Source: an uncultured Comamonas sp.
Lineage (GTDB): Bacteria > Pseudomonadota > Gammaproteobacteria > Burkholderiales > Burkholderiaceae_C
Assembly (NCBI GenBank): GCA_947306475.1
Contig: CAMZGS010000001.1
Location: 62,001-126,000 of the forward strand
DNA: 64,000 nucleotides
Direction of reading: 5' to 3'
How positions within the stretch are numbered: position 1 is the first letter of the stretch; each line of letters opens with the position of its first letter. This document shows positions 28,376 to 40,706 of this stretch, piece after piece. A model generated the notes under the pieces. That model saw only the letters and a list, made by a program, of their open reading frames with translations. It was not told the DNA's origin and ran no database searches. Made by a program: the position numbers and the translations under genes.

Positions 28376-31237
28376 ATGGCAAAGACTGATGGGGTCACTC
28401 AAGATCTTGGGGATAAAAACAAATCTTCTGAAGACAGATTGGAAATTGCTATTGAGCTTCAGCAAAAATGGCTTTTTGATGAGGCAAGGCTTCAATATGA
28501 AGAAATACTGAAGGAAAATCCTGATGATGCTAATGCACACCATAATATTGGGGTTTTGTTTTCAGTTCAACTTCTTCAGCCCATGGAGGCACTGAAGCAT
28601 TTTGAAGCTGCTTTAAATATAAATCCTACAAAATTGCAGTTTTGGTTCAGTTATATCGATGCTTTAATTAAAGTGGGCGCTGTAGATGTGGCTGAGCATG
28701 TTCTGGCACTGGCTAGTAATTATGGCTTAAACGACTTGCAAATATCTTCATTCGAGCGTGATATTCGGCTGGCTCGAACTACAGTTGCAGATTTGGTCTC
28801 GCAGGTGTTAAGTGGCACAGACCCACTGCCAAAATTTGAAAAAAATATTAATTCTAAAGTTGAATCAGAAAAAAATTATGGTGACCCAAGTATAGCAGAT
28901 TTACAGCGCTTGTTGAGCTTGTTCAATCAAAAGAAATATGATCGTGTCTGCAGTTCCATAAAAAAATTAATTCGCTCATTTCCTAAGTCTCCAACCTTAT
29001 GGAAGCTTTTGGGAGAATCAGAAAGGCTCATGGGAAGTGCTGAAAATGCATTGGAAGCCTATAAAAATTTGGCTAATTTAATGCCGAATGATACTCAGGC
29101 TCAAATGGATTTTATAAATATACTGATTCTTTGCAAGAAACATGTAGAAGCAGAAGTTGTTTTGAATGATTTATTGTGCAAAAATCCTGGTTTTTCTCCT
29201 GCATATGGTAAGTTGGGTATTCTTTATCAGCACCAGGGGAAAATAGAAGAGGCATTGTATAGCTATGCTAAATGTCTAAATAATGATTATTATGATCCAA
29301 TAATTTTAGAGAAATTTGGTGCTCTTTTAAGGATCAGAGGAGATCAAGATGGTGCCCTCGTGTGCTTCAAGTCTGCTGTGGAGGCCAGCCCAAATTCTGC
29401 AGAATTACAGCATGCCTATGGCATTACGCTATTGAATCAAGAGCGCTTGGCGGCAGCTGAAAATGCCTTCAGAAGTGCTTTGAAAATCCATCCTGGGTAC
29501 ACGCCTGCACTGCGCAGTTTGTGCCACTTGCTTGAATTGCATGGGCGATTTGCTGAGGCAGAGGCAGGTTTGCTGCGCTATGCAGAAATCGACAATGAAA
29601 GCCCGGAAAGTCTGTATGAAATTGGTCGTAACCTGGTGCAGCAGAAAAAAGAAAATGAAGCATTGGAGTGGTTACGCCGTGCGATCAAAGCCCAGCCAGA
29701 TTACGCTGCGGCCCATATTACCCTTAGCGCTGCACTGAACTCCACCGAAGACCCCTTGGCAGCTATGGAGGAAATTAAGGCCAGCATTAAAGTCTTGCCC
29801 AATATTCCGCACTTGCATACCAATTTAGGGATTGTGAACCTCTCCCTTAGCCGCGCTGATGATGCCATTGCATGCTTTCGCAAAGCATTGGAAATTGCGC
29901 CTAACTTCTCTCATGCCCGCAGCAGCATGCTGTTTGCCCTGAGTCATAGCACCAAAATCACCCCCGAAGAGCTGTACCGAGAGCACCGTGCTTACGGTAA
30001 ATTGATCGAAGAAGAAGTAAAAGGAAAGGAATACACCACCTATAGCAATAGCCGTACCACCGATCGGCCTTTAAAAATAGGGTTTGTTTCTGCTGACTTT
30101 AGGAATCATGCGGTAGCTAAATTTGTCATTCCATTCTTTGAAGAATTGCATAAGCGACCAGAATTTATTACCTACGCCTATTCCAATCATGGAGCAGTGG
30201 ATGAGTCAATGCTCGCCATCCAAAAAAATATGGATGTTTGGCGGACGGTCGTGCAATGGTCAGACGATAAACTGGCTGAAAAAATTCGAGAAGACCAAAT
30301 TGATATCCTGGTGGATATGAGTGGCCATACTGCCGGAGATAGACTAAAAGTATTCGCACGACATCCTGCGCCTGTACAAATGACGTGGCTGGGATACCCT
30401 GGAACTACGGGTTTGAAGGCAATGGATTATTTGGTGACTGAAAAAAATCTATTGCCTGGAAAGAATATTTACCCGCAGTTTGTGGAACGCATCATCCGTT
30501 TGCCTAGAGCGTTTTCGTTTGATGGGCAGGGTAATATGCAGTCAATTGGCTCTGCACCGCATGTTGAAAATAAATTCATTACATTCGGTTCGTTCAATCG
30601 ACTCAATAAGATAAACCGTGAAGTCATTGGGTTGTGGGCGCAGGTACTACGCGCCGTACCTGATTCACGCTTGCTGATGGCGGCGATGCCCAGCAGTGGC
30701 GCACCTGATGAGTTGTTGGAATGGTTTGCGGAAGAAGGTATCACCGAGGATAGGCTTTATTTCTACCCACGCTCTGGATTCGGTGAATATCTGAAATTGC
30801 ACAATCAAGTGGATTTCTGCTTGGATACTTTCCCGTACACCGGCGGCACAACAACTCTGCATGCTCTGTGGATGGGGGTGCCCACTCTGACGTTGGGTGG
30901 CGCCACTTATCCCAACTATCAAGGGGCCTTGATGTTGCACCAAGTGGGGTTGAATGACTATTTTGTGGCCGAGGACAAAGAGGATTTCGTCAAAAAGGCA
31001 CTCTTCTTGACGCAGAATAAACTTCTCTTGCAAGAAGTCCGTCAAGAACTACGTAACTACCTTTTGAATAATTACGAAAATAATTTGAAGGGGGTGGTGG
31101 ATGGTTTTGCAGCTGCTTTTCGTAAATCTTGGGAAATTTGGTGTTCTGGTAGTGGGGCAGTTCATTTCGAAATTGATTCTGAAGATATCAATTTTGATGC
31201 CAATCTGCCTCAATACTCTAAATACTTAGGTAAATAA
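28376..31237 (+). CDS. TPR-domain GT41 (SPINDLY/OGT-type) glycosyltransferase
   Basis: 953 aa. Residues about 20-540 are tetratricopeptide repeats (e.g. ALKHFEAALNINPTKLQFW, ALVCFKSAVEASPNSAELQHAYG, AIACFRKALEIAPNFSHARSSM). Residues about 560-930 are the GT41 catalytic region of SPINDLY/O-GlcNAc transferases: LKIGFVSADFRNHAVAKFV, DILVDMSGHTAGDRLKVFARHPAPVQMTWLGYPGTTG, FITFGSFNRLNKI, DTFPYTGGTTTLHALWMGVPTLTL. It would add a sugar to Ser/Thr of protein acceptors in the cytosol. The DNA is far more AT-rich than the surrounding chromosome, a strong sign of transfer. Position between fliA and the flagellin genes suggests flagellin as acceptor (inference). AAAAGGT ribosome site 4 nt before the ATG; strong terminator at the end. 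Confidence 0.9.
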   Translation: MAKTDGVTQDLGDKNKSSEDRLEIAIELQQKWLFDEARLQYEEILKENPDDANAHHNIGVLFSVQLLQPMEALKHFEAALNINPTKLQFWFSYIDALIKVGAVDVAEHVLALASNYGLNDLQISSFERDIRLARTTVADLVSQVLSGTDPLPKFEKNINSKVESEKNYGDPSIADLQRLLSLFNQKKYDRVCSSIKKLIRSFPKSPTLWKLLGESERLMGSAENALEAYKNLANLMPNDTQAQMDFINILILCKKHVEAEVVLNDLLCKNPGFSPAYGKLGILYQHQGKIEEALYSYAKCLNNDYYDPIILEKFGALLRIRGDQDGALVCFKSAVEASPNSAELQHAYGITLLNQERLAAAENAFRSALKIHPGYTPALRSLCHLLELHGRFAEAEAGLLRYAEIDNESPESLYEIGRNLVQQKKENEALEWLRRAIKAQPDYAAAHITLSAALNSTEDPLAAMEEIKASIKVLPNIPHLHTNLGIVNLSLSRADDAIACFRKALEIAPNFSHARSSMLFALSHSTKITPEELYREHRAYGKLIEEEVKGKEYTTYSNSRTTDRPLKIGFVSADFRNHAVAKFVIPFFEELHKRPEFITYAYSNHGAVDESMLAIQKNMDVWRTVVQWSDDKLAEKIREDQIDILVDMSGHTAGDRLKVFARHPAPVQMTWLGYPGTTGLKAMDYLVTEKNLLPGKNIYPQFVERIIRLPRAFSFDGQGNMQSIGSAPHVENKFITFGSFNRLNKINREVIGLWAQVLRAVPDSRLLMAAMPSSGAPDELLEWFAEEGITEDRLYFYPRSGFGEYLKLHNQVDFCLDTFPYTGGTTTLHALWMGVPTLTLGGATYPNYQGALMLHQVGLNDYFVAEDKEDFVKKALFLTQNKLLLQEVRQELRNYLLNNYENNLKGVVDGFAAAFRKSWEIWCSGSGAVHFEIDSEDINFDANLPQYSKYLGK

Positions 31238-31263
31238 AAAATCCGGCTATAGCCGGATTTTTT
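31236..31263. terminator. Bidirectional rho-independent terminator
   Basis: Perfect palindrome AAAATCCGGC TATA GCCGGATTTT, with A-run on the left and T-run on the right. It sits exactly between the convergent GT41 gene (+) and acyltransferase (-), so it can end both transcripts. Confidence 0.93.
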
Positions 31264-31825
31264 ATTTGATGGAATTTAGTAATTCTTTCTCGAGATCTAT
31301 TAAATTTCTTTTCCTGGGTTTTATTCTTTTTGCAGGATTTCCAGCGTAAATGTAGAACTCTTCGCAATTCTTGTTGACTAGGCTGAGTGCACCAATAGCA
31401 ACACCATTAGCGATATGTGTTCCTGGCAAAATAACGCTTCCACAGCCAATAATTACATGTTTTCCTAAGAAAACATCATCGTTATTTACGTTGGAAAATT
31501 TGCTTGGAACAGTAGGATTTGTTAAATATTCTCCAGAATAGTCATCGCTGCTAGAGTAAATAGATACTCTGGAAGAAAGTCCTGCAAAATCTGATATTGT
31601 GACCGCTCCTTTGCCTATTATTGAAGAGTGGCATGCTATATGTACATAGTTTCCTATTTTGATTTCTTTTCCACTTGATAAAATGCAGAAGTCATCAATT
31701 CTGACATTGTCTCCTAGGCTTATATTTTCTGCACCATAAAATTGAGCTTTGTCCGAGATGGAAATATTTTTTCCTAGGCTTTTAAAGCCTATTTTTTTTA
31801 TTTTTTCTTGTGTTAACATTCCCAT
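31262..31825 (-). CDS. Left-handed beta-helix (hexapeptide-repeat) acyltransferase
   Basis: 187 aa. Imperfect [LIV]-G-x-x-x-x hexapeptides run from about residue 15 to 160 (ISLGDNVRIDDFCILSSG, VHIACHSSIIGKG, VFLGKHVIIGCGSVILPGTHIANGVAIGALSLVNKN), ending in the family tail IYAGNPAKRIKPR. These trimeric enzymes move acetyl or other acyl groups from CoA to a sugar hydroxyl or amine. The DNA is very AT-rich, like the GT41 gene. The start overlaps the end of the aminotransferase by 13 nt (or 7 nt if the second Met is used), so the pair is translationally coupled. With the aminotransferase it would make an N-acylated amino sugar nucleotide. Confidence 0.88.
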   Translation of the reverse strand: MGMLTQEKIKKIGFKSLGKNISISDKAQFYGAENISLGDNVRIDDFCILSSGKEIKIGNYVHIACHSSIIGKGAVTISDFAGLSSRVSIYSSSDDYSGEYLTNPTVPSKFSNVNNDDVFLGKHVIIGCGSVILPGTHIANGVAIGALSLVNKNCEEFYIYAGNPAKRIKPRKRNLIDLEKELLNSIK

Positions 31826-32934
31826 GTTGCATCCTTTATTGTATTAATGATTTTTTCTTGCGCGTGAATTTCTAATTTTGGATAAATAGGTAAGCACAGA
31901 ACTTGATCCGAAGCATAGCATGCATGGCCGAGGTTGGCGCGTGTTGCAGAGGGCAAGCCACGGTACATCGGAAAATCCGCGATCAATGGATAAAAATAGC
32001 GGCGTGCATAAATGCCATGTGCCTTGAGTTTTTCATACAGCGCATCTCGGCCCAATGGGTAGTCTGGCCCCACCAGGATCGGGAAGTAAGAGTGGTTGGC
32101 GACGGTCTGGTGCCCTTTGGGCAGGCAGGTGATGCCGGGCACGTTGGCCAGTTGTTTGCGGTACTGTGCATCGATTTCGGCACGGCGCTGCAGGACATGG
32201 GGCATGTGTTGCAGCTGCAGCAGCCCAAAGGCGGCATTGATCTCGCTCATCTTGGCGTTGATGCCTGGCGCTACCACCGTGGTTTCGTTCACAAAACCAA
32301 AGTTTTTCAGGTGATCAATGCGCTGTTTGGTTTTGGCATCGTGGCAGATGATGGCACCGCCTTCAAAGGTGTTGAAGACCTTGGTGGCGTGAAAGCTCAG
32401 TACCGATAGGTCGCCGTGGCGCAAGATGCTGCCTCCGGCATCTTCCACCCCAAAGGCATGGGCAGCGTCGTAGATCACGCGCAGGTTGTAGTTGTCGGCA
32501 ATTTTTTGAATGGCTTCGGTGTCACACGGGTTGCCATAGCAGTGCACGGGCAGAATGGCTGTAGTTTGGGGCGTGATGGCCGCTTCGATTTTTGCCGGGT
32601 CTAGATTGAGTGTGCGTGGCTCCACATCCACAAACACGGGCTTGCAGTTTTGCCAGAGCAAGGCGTGTGCCGTGGCCACAAAAGAGTAAGGGGTGGTGAT
32701 AACTTCCCCCGTCACGCGCAGGGCCTGCAAGGCGGTGATGAGTGCCAGCGTTCCGTTGGTAAATAGCGCAATATGCGGCACGCCCAAGTACTCACACAGT
32801 GCTTGTTCGAGTTGCTGGTGAAAGGGGCCGCAGTTGGTCAGTACTTTATTGGCCCAGATTTGCTCCATGTAGGGGATGAACTCCTCCAAGGGGGGCAGGT
32901 AGGGCTGGGTGACGTAGATGTTTTCTTCTGCCAT
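31813..32934 (-). CDS. DegT/DnrJ/EryC1/StrS-family sugar-nucleotide aminotransferase
   Basis: 373 aa PLP enzyme of the ArnB/VioA/FdtB type that aminates 4-keto (or 3-keto) deoxy-sugar nucleotides. The PLP lysine is about residue 187 in LSFHATKVFNTFEGGAII; other blocks are NGTLALITALQAL, VITTPYSFVATAHALLW, VHCYGNPCD, YDAAHAFGV, NAKMSEINAAFGLLQL and RRYFYPLI. Composition is closer to the chromosome than the AT-rich acyltransferase that follows. The aminotransferase-acyltransferase pair next to a protein glycosyltransferase and flagellins parallels the vioA/vioB arrangement for viosamine on flagellin in pseudomonads; the exact sugar cannot be told from sequence. ATG at 32934; promoter probably in the 208 nt upstream. 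Confidence 0.9.
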   Translation of the reverse strand: MAEENIYVTQPYLPPLEEFIPYMEQIWANKVLTNCGPFHQQLEQALCEYLGVPHIALFTNGTLALITALQALRVTGEVITTPYSFVATAHALLWQNCKPVFVDVEPRTLNLDPAKIEAAITPQTTAILPVHCYGNPCDTEAIQKIADNYNLRVIYDAAHAFGVEDAGGSILRHGDLSVLSFHATKVFNTFEGGAIICHDAKTKQRIDHLKNFGFVNETTVVAPGINAKMSEINAAFGLLQLQHMPHVLQRRAEIDAQYRKQLANVPGITCLPKGHQTVANHSYFPILVGPDYPLGRDALYEKLKAHGIYARRYFYPLIADFPMYRGLPSATRANLGHACYASDQVLCLPIYPKLEIHAQEKIINTIKDATWEC

Positions 32935-33044: not shown

Positions 33045-33083
33045 TAAAAAATTGGCCTGCTGTGCTCACGTACACAGCAGGCC
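33045..33083 (-). terminator. Rho-independent terminator of the octapeptide-repeat gene
   Basis: An 11-bp perfect stem (GGCCTGCTGTG / CACAGCAGGCC) with an 8-nt loop, followed on the minus strand by AATTTTTTATCC. It lies 60 nt beyond the stop codon at 33143. Confidence 0.92.
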
Positions 33084-33142: not shown

Positions 33143-36100
33143 TTAAGGACTTTCGCTAGGGTCCTTTAGACCCAGAGCTTGCAGCTGATCTTCCTCTAGT
33201 TCGGCCAACTGTGCTTTAGTTAGCGCTTGAACCTGGGTATAGCTCAGTTTGCCCAATTGATCTGTGCTGAGTGAGGCGATCTTGTCGGCAGCGATGCTGC
33301 TGATTTGTTTGGGCAGCAGTGCCTGCAGTTGCGCATCTCCCAGATCTGCGATGGTCAGCGCGCCAAGCTGGCTAGTAGAAAGAGAGGCAATGACGGCTGG
33401 TTTAATGGCAGACAATTGCGTGCCGTCCAGCGCTGCAAAGTGATCGGCGCTCCAGCTCTTAATGGTGCTGGCTGTCAGCAAAGCCAAGTTGTCGGTGCTG
33501 ATATCGCCCACCACCTCCTTACTTAAGGCACCAATTTGTGCAGCACTCAGAGCACTAAATTGCGCAGTACCCATCTCGGCCACTTGCTCTGGCGTGATAT
33601 TTGCTATTTGCTTCACCGTCAGGGCTTGCACCTGTGTGCTCGTTAATTTCGCAAAATTGCCTGGTTCGATAGCTTGCAGTTGATCAGGCGTCAAAGCAGC
33701 AATCTGGCTTTTACCCAGTGCGGTCAACTGTGCTTCATCCAGCGCAGCTATGCCGTCGGGGGTGATCGCCTGGATTTGTTGGTTAGACAACGCGCTCAGT
33801 GCAGACTTGCTAAGTTTTGCAATATCTTCGCCCAACTCTTCAATTTGTGTGCTGGTCAACCCCTTGACTTGGGCTGCAACCATCTCGGTAAGCACGTCGG
33901 CTTCCAGTGATGTGATTTGCTCCACCTCCAAAGCAGCGATCTGGCTGTATTTCATGGCTTGCAGTTGAGAGCTTGTGAGTTGTGAGACGTCCAACTGCTT
34001 GACCTGTGCGCTCCCCAGTTGAGCCAAGTCTTCTGGTTCCAGCCATTTCACTTGCTCGGCGTTGAGCCATCCCACCTGTTCGGCTGTCAACGCCTTAGCT
34101 TGGGCTTTGGTCAAGTCTTGGATTTGGGTTTCTTCCAAGGCCTCAATCTGTGCCTGCGTCAATGCTTTGATTTGGCTGGTTTTGAGAGCTTGGATTTGCT
34201 CTGTATCAAGCACTTTGATGTGCTCCGGTGTCAAGGCTTGCAGCTGTGCTGTACTGAAGCCACTTAACTGTTTGCCCGTCAGTGCTTTGACTTGCTCGTC
34301 AGCATCCAGCGCGCCAATGTGATCTTTGCTGAGCCCCTTGATTTGTGCCGCCGTCATGGCTTGCAGTTGTGCTGGTACCAGCGCTTGGAGTTGAGGAACG
34401 GTGAGCTCTGCGATTTGCTTGGCATTGAGTGCTGTGAACTTGTCCGCAGCAATTGTTGCGAGATCTTCCGGCTTGATGAGCGCAATTTGTTGGGGCGTGA
34501 GCGCTTTGAGCTGCGCGGCACTCAGTCCCTTGATTTGCTCTGGGGTCATTGCTTTCAGCTGTGCGTCGCCCAAGTTTTTCAGCTGGGTACTGGTCATACC
34601 ACCCACATCACCTACGTCGAGAGCAGCAATTTGCCCGTCGTTCATAAAGTTGAGCTGTGTAGCAGACAGTTGCTTGACCTGGGCTGCTGTCAGCGCGGTC
34701 ACCTGAGCTTCATCCAGCGCTTTGATCTGCACCTCACCCAGGCCTTTGATTTGCATACTTCCGAGTTGTGCCAAATCAGCAGGCGCGATGGCTTTAACCT
34801 GCTCAGCAGTCAGTGCGCCCATTTGGGCGGAACTGAGCACTTTGAGCTTATCGGCGCTGATCTTGGAAAAATCCGCTGCATCCACTTTGGCAATCTGTGT
34901 AGTGGTCAAGGCTTTGAGCTGGTTGGCCGTCAGCTTTTCTACCTGGCCCTCGGTCAGGCTCTGCAAGTGTTCAGCCTTGATGCCTTTGAGCTGTGCCACC
35001 TGAATGAATGCCACGCCTTCGACATCTAATTGCTGAATTTGGGTATCGCTCAATGCATTGATTTGTGCTGCACTCAGGTGGGCAATGTGTTCTTTGCCTT
35101 TGAGTGCGCTAAGCTGATCATCACCGAATTTGGACAGTTGATCCGGCGTCAGTGCCTTGATTTGAGTGGCCGTCAACGCTGCAATTTGTTCAGGCTTTAA
35201 CGCCTGAATGTGCGTTTCTTCCAACGCCTGCACTTGCTTGGCAGAAAGTACCTGAACATTGGTGCCCAGATGCTCAATGTTTTTGCCCAGTGCTTTAACT
35301 TGCTCGGGGCTCAGTGCCTTGATTTGTGCTGGGCTCAAGGCTTTGATCTGGTCTTCGCTCAGGTTGTCCACTTTGTCCACAGCCAGGCCTTTGAGCTGCG
35401 TGCTGGAGAGGACGCTCACGTCAATCTCATCAATGAAGTCTTCCGAGATAGCGTTGATCTGAGCGGCCGACAGCGCCTTTAACTGTGTAGGCGTCAGCGC
35501 TTGAATGGAGGCTTCTGGCAAGTTGCTGATTTGCGCCGTGGTCAGCCCTTTAATCTGGCTGCTCGACAGCTCTTTGATTCGATCGCCCAGTTCCGCTAAT
35601 TGCCCATCTTTGAGTGCGCCCACGTGCTTGGCGCTGAGCCCTTGCAAAGCAGACGCACTGATGCCAGCAAAGGCCTCTGGCTCAATGGCTGCAATTTGCT
35701 CGGGCGTCAAGCTCTTGAAGTGTGTCGCAGTGAGTTTGCTAACTTGCGCTGCATTCAGAGCACCCAGTTGGCTGTTGTCGAGCGCTTTGAGCTGCGCCGC
35801 CGACCAATGTGCAATCTTGTCGCCCAGTTCGGTGATCTGCTCGGGAGTCAGATTCTTGAGCTGTGCAGGCGTCATCGCCTGCACCTGGGTGCTTGTCAAG
35901 GCTTTGACAAAATCACTGCCTAACGCCTGCACTTGCGCGTTGGTCAGCCCCTTCAGTTGGCTGCTGGTAAAGACCGATTTGTCGTAGGTTCCCATTGCCT
36001 CGGCCAGCTCATCGGCTTTCATGGCACCAATCTGTTTGCCGCTGAGGGTGACAAAGTCGCGGGTTTCAATGGCGACGATTTGATCTGCCTTCAGTGCGCC

Positions 36101-36211
36101 GATCTGATCGGTGCTCATGGCCCTAAAGTCTTTGGCGGTCAAGTCTGTAATTTGCTGTGGGGTGAGCTGACCGACTTGTGTAGGCGTTAAACCGCTGATG
36201 ATGGAAGACAT
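33143..36211 (-). CDS. Giant octapeptide-repeat protein of the flagellin locus, function unknown
   Basis: 1022 aa from ATG at 36211, with a GGAG ribosome site 7 nt upstream; a 33-codon in-frame extension to 36310 runs through the repeat-rich spacer and is unlikely. From residue 7 to the last dozen residues the whole chain is an 8-residue repeat, consensus L-[ST]-x-x-Q-[IVL]-x-[AGS] (for example LTPEQIKA, LSAAQLKA, LSSTQLKG), about 125 copies, with a few 7- or 9-residue units such as LGDKIAH. Leu at position 1, Ile/Val/Leu at 6 and a small residue at 8 imply a regular solenoid or short-helix stack. No signal peptide, no membrane segment and no cysteine; a handful of Trp. Short C-terminal tail (LGLKDPSESP). 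Own terminator and own ribosome site. GC is lower than the flagellar core. I do not recognise a defined family; adhesin-like, scaffold or flagellum-exported protein are all possible. Confidence 0.85.
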   Translation of the reverse strand: MSSIISGLTPTQVGQLTPQQITDLTAKDFRAMSTDQIGALKADQIVAIETRDFVTLSGKQIGAMKADELAEAMGTYDKSVFTSSQLKGLTNAQVQALGSDFVKALTSTQVQAMTPAQLKNLTPEQITELGDKIAHWSAAQLKALDNSQLGALNAAQVSKLTATHFKSLTPEQIAAIEPEAFAGISASALQGLSAKHVGALKDGQLAELGDRIKELSSSQIKGLTTAQISNLPEASIQALTPTQLKALSAAQINAISEDFIDEIDVSVLSSTQLKGLAVDKVDNLSEDQIKALSPAQIKALSPEQVKALGKNIEHLGTNVQVLSAKQVQALEETHIQALKPEQIAALTATQIKALTPDQLSKFGDDQLSALKGKEHIAHLSAAQINALSDTQIQQLDVEGVAFIQVAQLKGIKAEHLQSLTEGQVEKLTANQLKALTTTQIAKVDAADFSKISADKLKVLSSAQMGALTAEQVKAIAPADLAQLGSMQIKGLGEVQIKALDEAQVTALTAAQVKQLSATQLNFMNDGQIAALDVGDVGGMTSTQLKNLGDAQLKAMTPEQIKGLSAAQLKALTPQQIALIKPEDLATIAADKFTALNAKQIAELTVPQLQALVPAQLQAMTAAQIKGLSKDHIGALDADEQVKALTGKQLSGFSTAQLQALTPEHIKVLDTEQIQALKTSQIKALTQAQIEALEETQIQDLTKAQAKALTAEQVGWLNAEQVKWLEPEDLAQLGSAQVKQLDVSQLTSSQLQAMKYSQIAALEVEQITSLEADVLTEMVAAQVKGLTSTQIEELGEDIAKLSKSALSALSNQQIQAITPDGIAALDEAQLTALGKSQIAALTPDQLQAIEPGNFAKLTSTQVQALTVKQIANITPEQVAEMGTAQFSALSAAQIGALSKEVVGDISTDNLALLTASTIKSWSADHFAALDGTQLSAIKPAVIASLSTSQLGALTIADLGDAQLQALLPKQISSIAADKIASLSTDQLGKLSYTQVQALTKAQLAELEEDQLQALGLKDPSESP

Positions 36212-36292
36212 AAAAAACTCCAAGAGATAGCTCAACCGGAGCGCACCGCTGCGAAACCTCAGTGAAGAGCTGGGGGGACTGGCTAAAAAAAT

Positions 36293-36368
36293 AGCTGCTA
36301 CCACTGGCAATACATAGGTTTTAGGAAGTTTTATGCCTAAAACCTATGCATAGCAAGCGCTAACAGCT
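36293..36368. repeat. Comamonad-type intergenic palindrome, copy 5 with a 13-bp inner stem
   Basis: Outer arms ATAGCTGCTA and AGCGCTAACAGCT enclose a perfect 13-bp inverted repeat, CATAGGTTTTAGG at 36313-36325 and CCTAAAACCTATG at 36336-36348, separated by 10 nt. It lies between the octapeptide-repeat gene and flagellin 1, both on the minus strand, and so in the 5' region of the former. Confidence 0.75.
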
Positions 36369-36429: not shown

Positions 36430-37740
36430 TTAGCCTTGCAGCAATTGCAGCACGTTCTGTGGGATCTGATTGGCCTGTGCCACCATGGCCGTACCGGCTT
36501 GTTGCAGGATCTGGGTGCGGCTCAGGTTGGCGGTTTCTACGGCAAAGTCGGCGTCCACAATGCGGCCACGGGCCGCAGCCAGGTTTTCCACTTGTACATC
36601 GATGTTGTTCACTGCCGTTTCAAAACGTGTCTGGATGGCGCCCAGCGTGGCGCGGGCACTGTTGACTTGATCGATGGCGCTGTCGATTTTTTTCAGTGCG
36701 ACCCAGGCGCCAGCCTGAGTAGAGACGTTGATGTCCTCAATGCCCTTTTGATTCCCCAGCACGTTGGCACCGGATGCGCCACCATCAATCTCAATTGATG
36801 TAGCGTCCATACCGGTAAGTGCTTCTGTGAAGCCATCAAAGGTAACGCTGACAGGATTGCCCTGACCATCCAGCTTGCCGGACATGATTTCAATGTGGTA
36901 GGCCTCGGTGCCTTCTACCTTGGTCAAGTATGCAGTCACACCAGTGTCAGCACTCTTGTTGTTGATGGCTTCCACCACTTGGCCCAGGCGCTCTTGCGGA
37001 CTCTCAGCGGCCTTCATGTCGCCCAGGGGCACTTCCACTTGAGCCAGAGGGTTGCCGTCAGGATCGTAGCCGTCAATCAAGATCTTGAGATCACCCAAAG
37101 CAATAGGCTGATCAAAGTCCGTGATGGAGTTGGCCACGGGGGGAGAGGCGCTGCTGTCGATACTGGTGTCCACCACGATGGGGGTGGGCGGATCGGCGGG
37201 GACGGGAGCAATGCCGTAGGAGATGTTGGAGATTTGCGAGGCACGTGTATCCACCAGCGCACCCAGCGTGATGTTGTCGCCGGAGTTGGCGCCTACCTGG
37301 AACACGGCGCCAGCAAAGCTGCCGTCCAGCACTTTTTGACCGTTGAAGTTGGTTTGCTTGGCCACACGGTCGATCTCATCGGCCAGTTGCTTCACTTCCA
37401 GTTGCAGGGCCTTGCGGTCAGAGGCGCTGTTGGTGGCGTTGCCGGCCTGCACGGCTAGCTCGCGCATGCGCTGCAGCATGTCACCAATCTTGCCCAGGGC
37501 GCCTTCGGTGGTTTGCGCCAGCGAGATGCCGTCGTTGGCATTGCGCGAAGCCACAGTCAGGCCCTTGACCTGGGTGTTCATGCGCTCGGCAATGGCCAGG
37601 CCAGCGGCATCGTCCTTGGCGCTATTGACGCGCAGGCCCGAGGACAGGCGCTGCATGGTGGTGTTCAGGGACTGGCCCGAAAGTGCCAGATTGCGCTGGG
37701 CGTTGATGGAGGCGATGTTCGTATTGATAGTTGCGGCCAT
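36430..37740 (-). CDS. fliC: Flagellin 1
   Basis: 436 aa from ATG at 37740 (MAATINTNIASINAQRNL). The conserved D0/D1 N-terminus (TTMQRLSSGLRVNSAKDDAAGLAIAERMNTQ ... NDGISLAQTTEGALGKIGDMLQRMRELAVQAGN) and C-terminus (RIVDADFAVETANLSRTQILQQAGTAMVAQANQIPQNVLQLLQG) are intact. The middle (about residues 175-350) is the variable outer domain and differs most from flagellins 2 and 3. An AAGGAATCACAGCA ribosome-site context almost identical to flagellin 2 precedes the start. Transcribed away from flagellins 2 and 3; no sigma-28 box is evident on this strand. Secreted by the flagellar export apparatus. Confidence 0.97.
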   Translation of the reverse strand: MAATINTNIASINAQRNLALSGQSLNTTMQRLSSGLRVNSAKDDAAGLAIAERMNTQVKGLTVASRNANDGISLAQTTEGALGKIGDMLQRMRELAVQAGNATNSASDRKALQLEVKQLADEIDRVAKQTNFNGQKVLDGSFAGAVFQVGANSGDNITLGALVDTRASQISNISYGIAPVPADPPTPIVVDTSIDSSASPPVANSITDFDQPIALGDLKILIDGYDPDGNPLAQVEVPLGDMKAAESPQERLGQVVEAINNKSADTGVTAYLTKVEGTEAYHIEIMSGKLDGQGNPVSVTFDGFTEALTGMDATSIEIDGGASGANVLGNQKGIEDINVSTQAGAWVALKKIDSAIDQVNSARATLGAIQTRFETAVNNIDVQVENLAAARGRIVDADFAVETANLSRTQILQQAGTAMVAQANQIPQNVLQLLQG

Positions 37741-38131: not shown

Positions 38132-39328
38132 ATGGCAATGACCATCAACACCAACGTCGTCTCCATCAACGCCCAGCGCAATCTGAGCCTGTCGGGTAGC
38201 TCTTTGGGTGTGTCCATGCAACGTCTGTCTTCCGGCCTGCGTGTGAATAGCGCCAAGGACGACGCTGCTGGCCTGGCCATTGCCGAGCGTATGAGCACCC
38301 AGGTGCGCGGCTTTGCTGTGGCTTCTCGTAACGCCAACGACGGTATTTCGCTGGCACAAACCGCTGAAGGCGCCCTGGGCAAGGTGGGTGACATGCTGCA
38401 GCGCATGCGTGAACTGGCCGTGCAGGCCGGTAACGCCACCAACAGCAAGAGCGACCGTGAAGCGCTCAATGCCGAGCTGGTGCAACTGCGCGATGAGGTG
38501 GACCGCGTGGCCAAGACCACCACGTTCAATGGTGCCAAGCTGTTGGACGGCAGCTTCACCGGTGGCGTATTCCAGGTGGGGGCCAACTCGGGCGACAACA
38601 TCACCGTGGGGGCGCTGGCCAATACCAAGGTGACTGAACTGGGCAAGGCCAACTATGGCACGGGGGCGGGGGCAGCGTTTGTGACTGCTGATAAAGATGC
38701 AGCCGCTGCAGCCATGACCAATGCCAATGTCACGATCACCATCATTGGTGCCGGCGGTGGGTCTGGTGTGACAGCCGTCGTTGCTAAAGATCCTAATATC
38801 ACAGGGGACGAAGCACTGGGGCGGATGATTCAGGCCATCAACTCCAAAACTGCCGATACCGGGGTGGTGGCCTTCCTCAATGATGCTGGGGACGCAATTG
38901 AATACCGCGCTACCGTGGGCGAAGGGGAAGATGCAACGAATGTTGCCATCTCTGCAGACGTTGCAGATGCCAATACCTTGATTGAACTGGCGGCGGGTAT
39001 TGATGCCAGCACCAAAGGCATCGACAAAATGGACATCAAAACCCAAGCCACTGCATGGGAGTCGCTGCAGCGCATTGACAGCGCCCTGGACAAAGTCAGC
39101 TCTGCCCGTGCCGAGCTGGGCGCTATTCAGACGCGCTTTGAGAAGGCGATCGAAAACATCGACATCATGCACGAGAACATCTCTGCTGCCCGCGGTCGCA
39201 TTGTGGACGCCGACTTTGCCAAGGAGACGGCCAACCTGAGCCGCACGCAGATCCTGCAGCAGGCCGGCACTGCCATGGTCTCGCAGGCCAACCAACTGCC
39301 CCAGCAAGTGCTGCAGCTGCTGCAGTAA
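38132..39328 (+). CDS. fliC: Flagellin 2
   Basis: 398 aa (MAMTINTNVVSINAQRNLSLSGSSLGVSMQRLSSGLRVN...). Conserved D0/D1 arms are nearly identical to those of flagellin 3 (EGALGKVGDMLQRMRELAVQAGNATNSKSDREALNAEL at the N-side; ARGRIVDADFAKETANLSRTQILQQAGTAMVSQANQLPQQVLQLLQ at the C-side); the central part (about residues 175-300) diverges. It is the only one of the three flagellins with a clear sigma-28 promoter. The high-frequency codon choice suits an abundant protein. Flagellin 3 follows 190 nt later on the same strand, suggesting tandem duplication. Confidence 0.97.
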   Translation: MAMTINTNVVSINAQRNLSLSGSSLGVSMQRLSSGLRVNSAKDDAAGLAIAERMSTQVRGFAVASRNANDGISLAQTAEGALGKVGDMLQRMRELAVQAGNATNSKSDREALNAELVQLRDEVDRVAKTTTFNGAKLLDGSFTGGVFQVGANSGDNITVGALANTKVTELGKANYGTGAGAAFVTADKDAAAAAMTNANVTITIIGAGGGSGVTAVVAKDPNITGDEALGRMIQAINSKTADTGVVAFLNDAGDAIEYRATVGEGEDATNVAISADVADANTLIELAAGIDASTKGIDKMDIKTQATAWESLQRIDSALDKVSSARAELGAIQTRFEKAIENIDIMHENISAARGRIVDADFAKETANLSRTQILQQAGTAMVSQANQLPQQVLQLLQ

Positions 39329-39518: not shown

Positions 39519-40706
39519 ATGGCTATGTCCATCAACACCAATGTGGTGTCCATCAATGCCCAGCGCAACCTGGGTCTGTCGGGCGGTTCGCTGGCCCAAT
39601 CCATGCAGCGCCTGTCTTCCGGCCTGCGCGTTAACAGCGCCAAGGACGACGCTGCGGGCCTGGCGATTGCCGAGCGCATGAGCACCCAGGTCAAAGGCCT
39701 GGCCGTGGCTTCGCGCAATGCCAACGATGGCATTTCGCTGGCGCAAACCGCTGAAGGCGCTTTGGGCAAAGTGGGCGACATGCTGCAGCGCATGCGTGAA
39801 CTGGCGGTGCAGGCCGGTAACGCCACCAACAGCAAGAGCGACCGTGAAGCCCTGCAGGCTGAACTGAAGCAGCTGCGGGAAGAGGTGGACCGTGTGGCCA
39901 AGACCACCAGCTTTAACGGCAAAAAGCTGCTGGACGGCAGCTTCACCGGCGCTGTGTTCCAAGTGGGTGCCAACTCTGGCGACAACATCACGGTGGGTGC
40001 TTTGGCCAACACCAAGGTGGACCAACTGGGTAATACCACCTACGCCACCAGCTCGGCAACCATCGATACCACTGCAATGTCCAGCATGGCAGCGGCGATT
40101 AAGTCGACGGCCGCTAATGCCGGTGACATCACTATCAAGGGTGCCAATGGCATCACTGTCACGGCCACAGTGGCTCAAGACGACAATGTGACCAATGAAG
40201 AGGCATTGGGCCGCGTGATCGAGGCCATCAACTCGAAGACTGCGGATACTGGCGTGACGGCTTTCCTGGAAGACAACGCAGGCGTCAAGAGCATTGCCTT
40301 CCGTGCCACGGCCAACGACGCAGGTGTGGCTTCGAGCGTAACTGTTTCGGGTGCAGGCTTGGCTAGCCAAACACTGGTTCAGACCACTGTAACGGGCATC
40401 GACAAGGTGGACATCGGTACCCAAAAAGGCGCGTGGGAAGCCTTGCAGCAAATCGACCAAGCCATCGACAAAGTCAACAGCGCCCGCGGCGAGCTGGGTG
40501 CCATCCAGACTCGTTTTGAGAAGACCGTCGAGAACATCGACATCCAGAACGAGAACCTGTCTGCTGCCCGTGGCCGTATCGTGGACGCCGACTTCGCTCA
40601 AGAAACGGCCAACCTCAGCCGCACGCAGATCCTGCAACAAGCCGGTACTGCCATGGTGGCCCAGGCCAACCAGCTGCCCCAGCAGGTGCTGAGCCTGCTG
40701 CGTTAA
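39519..40706 (+). CDS. fliC: Flagellin 3
   Basis: 395 aa (MAMSINTNVVSINAQRNLGLSGGSLAQSMQRLSSGLRVN...), a tandem paralogue of flagellin 2 with near-identical terminal arms (SLAQTAEGALGKVGDMLQRM; VDADFAQETANLSRTQILQQ). The central domain (about residues 175-300) contains Thr/Ser/Ala-rich stretches that would offer O-glycosylation sites. An AAGAAGGGGAATCC ribosome site precedes the ATG. The 190 nt upstream lacks a sigma-28 box, so it may depend on read-through from flagellin 2. A strong terminator ends the gene. Confidence 0.97.
   Translation: MAMSINTNVVSINAQRNLGLSGGSLAQSMQRLSSGLRVNSAKDDAAGLAIAERMSTQVKGLAVASRNANDGISLAQTAEGALGKVGDMLQRMRELAVQAGNATNSKSDREALQAELKQLREEVDRVAKTTSFNGKKLLDGSFTGAVFQVGANSGDNITVGALANTKVDQLGNTTYATSSATIDTTAMSSMAAAIKSTAANAGDITIKGANGITVTATVAQDDNVTNEEALGRVIEAINSKTADTGVTAFLEDNAGVKSIAFRATANDAGVASSVTVSGAGLASQTLVQTTVTGIDKVDIGTQKGAWEALQQIDQAIDKVNSARGELGAIQTRFEKTVENIDIQNENLSAARGRIVDADFAQETANLSRTQILQQAGTAMVAQANQLPQQVLSLLR

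What the first reader, a model, noticed from the sequence alone, without database searches (positions are those of the whole stretch)
33143..36211. A 1022-residue, cysteine-free protein built of about 125 octapeptides beside the flagellins
Seen: almost the whole chain is an 8-residue repeat, L-[ST]-x-x-Q-[IVL]-x-[AGS], with Ser/Thr-Pro-Glu-Gln turns typical of helix caps and a few 7-residue LGDxI slips. It has its own ribosome site and a textbook terminator, no signal peptide and no Cys. The DNA copies are diverged while the protein periodicity is kept, so selection holds the octad. Known: Cys-free chains without Sec signals are typical of flagellar-exported or type I-secreted proteins. Inference: it could be a flagellum-associated sheath, tether, adhesin or export ruler. 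I cannot name a defined family for it.
Basis: partly seen in the sequence, partly recalled or inferred. Interest (0 to 1): 0.8.

Follow-up and report, generated by a model that had tools for sequence, protein, structure and literature searches.

The report
Octapeptide-repeat protein beside flagellin genes
A bacterial protein made almost wholly of one eight-residue repeat belongs to a known but functionally uncharacterised repeat family, and its relatives are often encoded right beside a sugar-attaching enzyme, which suggests that they are sugar-coated proteins carried out of the cell.

Summary
In detail: window 33143-36211 (-) encodes 1022 Cys-free residues of an 8-residue repeat under strong selection; a same-genus ortholog is also 1022 aa (56% identical, synonymous sites saturated). 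'No defined family' is wrong: Pfam PF20080 (ALTTAQ repeat) matches at E 5.5e-132. New here: in 77 named loci from several phyla a TPR/GT41 (O-GlcNAc-transferase-like) gene lies within 2 kb of the octad gene in 44, in 33 of them downstream on the same strand. All 50 of those genomes that were tested carry GT41; in the family sample 99 of 103 octad-positive and 148 of 296 octad-negative genomes do. Type I secretion genes (15 of 130 loci) or flagellar genes (14 of 130) sometimes lie nearby, never both. Flagellin linkage is recurrent but not general (7 of 98 genomes within 15 kb). Here the octad gene is a presence/absence insert between flaA, from which a terminator-like hairpin parts it, and a sugar-aminotransferase gene; the GT41 nearby is not of the octad-partner clades, and no type I exporter was found in the window. 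Best reading: an exported, probably glycosylated repeat rod. Export route and flagellar role are unproven.

The parts
33143..36211 (-). octad-repeat (ALTTAQ, PF20080) protein, 1022 aa
   Evidence: same-length ortholog
36218..36221 (-). GGAG ribosome-binding site, 6 bases from ATG
   Evidence: read
33054..33083 (-). intrinsic terminator of the octad gene, 12-bp stem, T run
36284..36362 (-). long hairpin followed by a T run in the flaA-octad gap: a terminator-like element that would part the octad gene from flaA (limits approximate)
   Evidence: folded; hairpins with T runs stand in the matching gaps of three same-genus genomes
35882..36211 (-). N-terminal ~110 residues: sub-family signature shared with Tepidimonas and Limnohabitans, with a non-octad stretch
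36430..37740 (-). flagellin (flaA) upstream, same strand
   Evidence: Pfam Flagellin_N and _C
31813..32934 (-). DegT-type sugar aminotransferase; next to flaA directly in two octad-less same-genus genomes
31262..31825 (-). hexapeptide acyltransferase
28376..31237 (+). TPR + GT41 (SPINDLY/OGT-like) glycosyltransferase of the flagellar cluster; not in the octad-partner clades
38132..39328 (+). second flagellin
   Evidence: PF00669 match
39519..40706 (+). third flagellin
   Evidence: PF00669 match

Best explanation
The protein is a member of the PF20080 octad family: one long chain of short repeated turns, made without a recognisable Sec signal and exported as a repeat rod that is probably O-glycosylated in the cytoplasm first. 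Its kin are often encoded with a TPR-GT41 glycosyltransferase, which would bind the repetitive chain through its TPRs and place sugars on Ser/Thr at octad positions 2 and 3, and in some lineages with a type I ABC/HlyD exporter. In this genus the gene is an optional insert in the flagellin-glycosylation-type region between flaA and degT, with its own terminator and a terminator-like hairpin before it. There it would make a surface or flagellum-associated adhesive or coating rod, glycosylated, if at all, by the flagellar cluster's own GT41. Shown: the repeat, its conservation, family membership, the GT41 linkage and co-occurrence in kin, presence/absence between flaA and degT. Inferred: export, glycosylation, rod shape, and the adhesive or coating role.
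For: PF20080 at 429.6 bits (cut-off 26.4), 36 stretches. Ortholog of identical length, pS 0.75 against pN 0.28, octad position-1 and position-5 residues identical in 88% and 90% of 105 units. GT41 gene within 2 kb in 44 of 77 named loci, 33 downstream on the same strand; the commonest neighbour cluster (40 of 77), the next being at 11. GT41 in 50 of 50 tested genomes, about half with only two match segments, that is probably one gene; 99 of 103 against 148 of 296 in the family sample. Octad-adjacent GT41s cluster on a tree (7 label changes, 24.1 in shuffles). Nine plasmid partner genes confirmed as TPR + GT41 by Pfam. Full cassettes: Cereibacter sphaeroides plasmid b, octad + O-linked acetylglucosamine transferase + peptidase-domain ABC + HlyD; Rhodospirillaceae SSF9, ABC-HlyD-octad-GT41. 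Flagellin, octad and GT41 together in Thauera and on a Pseudorhizobium plasmid. 100 of 126 complete octad proteins, the window's included, are Cys-free.
Against: The window GT41 belongs to a separate lineage that is also present in same-genus genomes without the octad gene, so the octad partner proper is missing here. Four of 103 octad genomes have no GT41, among them a close N-terminal relative, G084. In the 38 unnamed family loci GT41 is within 2 kb in only 5. Only 63% of P0001 units have Ser/Thr at position 2 or 3 (71% in the ortholog), against 93-96% on average in the relatives; position-2 Ser/Thr does not differ between loci with and without a GT41 neighbour (0.70 and 0.67, p 0.12), and position-3 Ser/Thr is lower with one (0.76 and 0.85). 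No type I exporter gene was found in the 64-kb window; the rest of the genome was not searched for one. The 99/103 comparison is not corrected for relatedness.
Confidence: 0.5

Rival explanations
1. A flagellum-specific accessory: exported by the flagellar type III apparatus and bound to the filament as a sheath, tether or adhesin.
For: Downstream of flaA on the same strand in two species of the genus. Flagellin within 15 kb in 7 of 98 octad genomes against 0.9 expected (one of the 7 is the window's own). Recurs in other lineages. Octad proteins with flagellin within about 11 kb are all bare (8 of 8 proteins in six genomes; others 62 bare and 56 capped, Fisher p 0.009).
Against: Most relatives are not near flagellar genes. 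Capped forms do occur 12-25 kb from flagellin (G072, G439, G227, G304, and a cap domain in G116). The Tepidimonas relative with the same N-terminus is 180 kb from its flagellin. A terminator-like hairpin parts the gene from flaA. No sigma-28-like site before it (best 7 of 12 positions, ortholog 10 of 12), but this says little, as flaA and flaC score 7 too and only flaB scores 11. Sister species keep the flagellin cluster without it.
Confidence: 0.22
2. A type I-secreted surface adhesin like its ABC-linked relatives, the flagellin neighbourhood being merely a permissive site for variable surface genes.
For: ABC plus HlyD genes within 10 kb in 9 of 77, 4 of 15 and 2 of 38 loci, beside both bare and capped proteins. 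The insert is a presence/absence cassette. Some plasmid records annotate relatives as large exoprotein or heme utilization protein.
Against: No ABC, HlyD or TolC match in the 64-kb window; flagellin proximity in the family exceeds chance.
Confidence: 0.35
3. A cytoplasmic scaffold or length-defined repeat protein that is not exported and works in flagellin glycosylation or chaperoning.
For: Lies between flaA and degT; exact length conservation between two species; no Sec signal by eye.
Against: Relatives with type I exporter genes and EF-hand-like caps point outward; sister species have the cluster without it.
Confidence: 0.12

Closest known systems
Pfam PF20080 ALTTAQ repeat
   Same: Same octad, 36 stretches over the chain, far above the cut-off
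   Different: I saw only name and score, and no function in my literature searches. P0001 is short for the group (median about 2280 aa), lacks the C-terminal cap and has fewer Ser/Thr at octad position 3
Caulobacter FlmG-flagellin system (PMC7591256, abstract and passages seen)
   Same: A cytoplasmic enzyme of TPR plus glycosyltransferase domains that O-glycosylates an exported, self-assembling substrate; the window GT41 lies in a flagellar cluster
   Different: The substrate there is flagellin; most octad-GT41 pairs lie away from flagellin genes. The passages seen place FlmG in the GT-B superfamily and do not name GT41
HMW1/HMW1C (PMC3012730 and PMC3983070, search listing with start of abstract only)
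   Same: GT41-type enzyme working with one large exported adhesin
   Different: HMW1 is N-glycosylated and two-partner secreted; no two-partner domain in P0001
PDB 9zem HeliScrew4
   Same: 120-residue chain of the same LTPEQ-type octads, phmmer E 1.8e-14
   Different: Only the entry name and its alignment were seen; its origin and fold were not read

Membership tests
PF20080 ALTTAQ repeat | score above curated cut-off | tested here: met
   429.6 bits against 26.4
capped octad proteins | EF-hand-like C-terminal domain of about 230-290 aa | tested here: not met
   chain ends in octads and LKDPSESP
octad-GT41 pair | GT41 gene of the octad-partner clades beside the octad gene | tested here: not met
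   window GT41 lies about 1.9 kb away with two genes between and in a separate clade
type I secreted RTX-type adhesin | RTX repeats, or ABC/HlyD genes close by | tested here: not met
   no RTX family among Pfam hits; no ABC/HlyD/TolC match in the window
two-partner secreted adhesin (HMW1 type) | TPS domain and Sec signal | tested here: not met
   no such Pfam hit; signal judged by eye only
flagellin or flagellar axial proteins | flagellin N/C domains | tested here: not met
   no hit in P0001
flagellar type III substrate | export lost in flhA mutant | not testable with these tools
   experiment needed

The most novel reading that the evidence does not exclude
Octad proteins and their TPR-GT41 enzymes form a widespread, undescribed cytoplasmic glycosylation-and-export module: a rod with about one candidate sugar site per eight residues, made with its own O-glycosyltransferase and plugged into either a type I exporter or the flagellar exporter. 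The flagellin-linked bare forms, including this one, are glycosylated flagellar appendage proteins.
Probability: 0.25. Interest if true: 0.8.

Novelty: new variant of a known kind. Interest (0 to 1): 0.55.

Why it matters
It gives a testable function to a Pfam repeat for which my searches found none: a ready enzyme-substrate pair, present in species close to laboratory models (Cereibacter sphaeroides; a Caulobacter), for bacterial GT41 enzymes, whose native substrates are, as far as I recall, poorly known. A repeat with about one candidate acceptor per octad would be a simple substrate for studying TPR-guided O-glycosylation.

Tried and rejected
Other Pfam hits on P0001 (CAAP1, over its cut-off at 105 bits, SAM_3, also over it, EndoS LRR, DUF4351 and so on) and the LRR chains in PDB were set aside as matches to the leucine spacing. 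NCBIfam hits were all far below their cut-offs. PHROG 15773 (E 2.6e-23) has no function; the phage records held one weak match. Ser/Thr at octad position 2 does not set apart 53 loci with a GT41 neighbour from 61 without (p 0.12). GT41 presence inside the genus is only suggestive: 3 of 3 octad carriers and 20 of 50 others. A sigma-28 site before the octad gene was not found, nor before two of the three flagellins. Literature searches gave nothing relevant on the repeat: octapeptide repeat/solenoid, ALTTAQ, HeliScrew/PF20080, LTTAQ-type strings, GT41 with type I secretion, Rhodobacter with OGT.

Errors of mine: the record P0001 was read from an alignment file with gaps, so its own numbers there are void; one search repeats them from the window DNA. 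The first cap test used a cap query that held octads and misfiled the Thauera protein; one search replaces it. In one search the ortholog was started six residues late; its length, 1022, is. One search missed the GT41 hit of L161, seen. One search used partner genes of two plasmid loci as seeds; one search repeats the plasmid count without them (8 of 15 again) and one search confirms the genes. One search included three genomes (G046, G077, G086) that are not octad carriers.

Full report
The finding. The open frame at 33143-36211 (-) encodes 1022 residues without cysteine. A profile learned from the chain places 105 octads over 840 residues, 86 of 104 steps being exactly eight residues; the strict motif is found 27 times against 0.17 in shuffles. 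The DNA copies are old: 45% mean identity between units, and one weak tandem row. A ribosome site and a clear terminator flank it.

It is a known family. Pfam PF20080, ALTTAQ repeat, scores 429.6 bits (cut-off 26.4) over 36 stretches. A PDB chain called HeliScrew4 (9zem) has the same octads. I found no paper on the repeat in the open library. Plasmid records call relatives hypothetical protein, heme utilization protein, ice nucleation protein or large exoprotein. Of 14 control genomes only Caulobacter vibrioides holds PF20080; it and Synechococcus elongatus hold GT41.

It is under selection. In the genus, 3 of 53 genomes carry octads. One of them, G465, has a full ortholog of exactly 1022 residues, 56% identical with few indels; synonymous differences are saturated (0.75) while non-synonymous ones are 0.28, and octad positions 1 and 5 (Leu and Gln as a rule) are identical in 88% and 90% of units. 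A repeat gene that has kept its length through that much change is not free to expand and contract.

Local context. In G000 and G465 the gene lies between flaA and a DegT aminotransferase, with a TPR-GT41 gene and flagellar genes further on (FlhA, FlhB, FlhF, FlhG and FliA are names that I gave by recognition, carried over by tblastn). Two sister genomes, G024 and G029, have the same order without the octad gene, flaA and degT being about 210 and 265 bases apart. So the octad gene is an optional insert. In all four gaps behind flaA a long hairpin with a T run is predicted, so the octad gene is probably not read through from flaA. The window GT41 aligns to SPINDLY and OGT chains, with the conserved His, His and Lys stretches in place (which residues are catalytic is recalled). 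No ABC, HlyD or TolC match was found in the window.

Relatives. In the family sample 103 of 399 genomes (48 of 141 genera) match. Many are giants with an EF-hand-like C-terminal cap; others end in octads, as P0001 does. Of 136 complete chains gathered, the window's included, 56 are capped, 70 bare and 10 unclear; 100 of the 126 clear ones lack Cys. The N-terminal 100 residues define a sub-family; a scan with them confirmed 458 places, of which the best 80, in 77 named loci from several phyla, were returned. Some loci are in both the named and the unnamed sets (for example L161 and L085, L205 and L097, L209 and L079), so the sets are not independent.

The GT41 partner. A GT41 gene is within 2 kb of the octad gene in 44 of the 77 named loci, in 33 of them downstream on the same strand; in the 38 unnamed family loci it is 5 of 38, and in 15 plasmid loci 8 within 3 kb. 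No other neighbour cluster comes near this: 40 loci against 11 for the next. All 50 genomes tested, out of those behind the 77 loci, carry GT41; the limit of 50 decided the number. In the family sample GT41 is present in 99 of 103 octad-positive and 148 of 296 octad-negative genomes (Fisher p 6e-20, not corrected for kinship). There GT41 often sits near flagellin too (all of 20 regions picked for it hold both within 8.5 kb), which weakens that comparison. On a tree of 73 GT41 catalytic domains the octad-adjacent ones group (7 changes against 24.1 shuffled); 14 flagellin-adjacent ones and one further row share a clade, whose nearest neighbours are five octad-adjacent ones; the window GT41 and its same-genus kin form a third, distant lineage. 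So the pairing is real in the family, but this window lacks the proper partner.

Export neighbours. ABC plus HlyD genes lie within 10 kb in 9 of 77, 4 of 15 and 2 of 38 loci; flagellar genes within 11 kb in 6, 2 and 6; no locus has both (zero is not significant at these counts, and flanks are 10 kb or less). Examples: ABC-HlyD-octad-GT41 in Rhodospirillaceae SSF9, octad with OGT, ABC and HlyD in Cereibacter sphaeroides, flagellin-octad-GT41 on a Pseudorhizobium plasmid, octad and GT41 beside FlhA and FliI on a Rhodovastum plasmid. Flagellin lies within 15 kb of an octad gene in 7 of 98 family genomes (0.9 expected) and within 25 kb in 11 (1.5 expected); the window genome is one of each. Octad proteins within about 11 kb of flagellin are all bare (8 of 8 proteins in six genomes), but at 12-25 kb capped ones occur (G072, G439, G227, G304, G116).

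Interpretation. The safest account is an exported, Sec-less repeat rod, in many kin modified by its own cytoplasmic GT41. Whether P0001 is glycosylated is open: its genus lacks the partner clade beside it, and P0001 and its ortholog have fewer Ser/Thr at octad positions 2-3 (63% and 71%) than the relatives (93-96% on average). Whether it leaves by the flagellar or a type I route is open too.

Noticed in passing
window 28376-31237 and 31262-32934: TPR-GT41, hexapeptide acyltransferase and DegT between FliA and the flagellins: looks like a flagellin O-glycosylation cluster of FlmG type; GT41 and DegT are present with or without the octad gene in the genus.
   Followed up: partly
L228-L247: In 20 regions of the family picked for it, a GT41 gene lies near flagellin genes; 14 of these enzymes entered the tree and fall in one clade with one further row.
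   Followed up: partly
window about 36284-36362: Long hairpin with a T run behind flaA; hairpins at the same place in three same-genus genomes differ in sequence but keep the form.
   Followed up: partly
G090:C12:770620-796485: About 26 kb rich in octad-coding matches in one stretch, apparently several genes, some matches with a stop inside.
   Followed up: no
L092:2689-6708 and L093:13587-15737: A 1339-residue flagellin beside a 2061-residue octad frame, and in the same genome a 716-residue flagellin beside a 2437-residue octad frame.
   Followed up: no
L062-L099: Methylmalonyl-CoA mutase-like genes lie near octad giants in 11 of 38 loci and a GntR regulator in 5: a recurring chromosomal site.
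   Followed up: no
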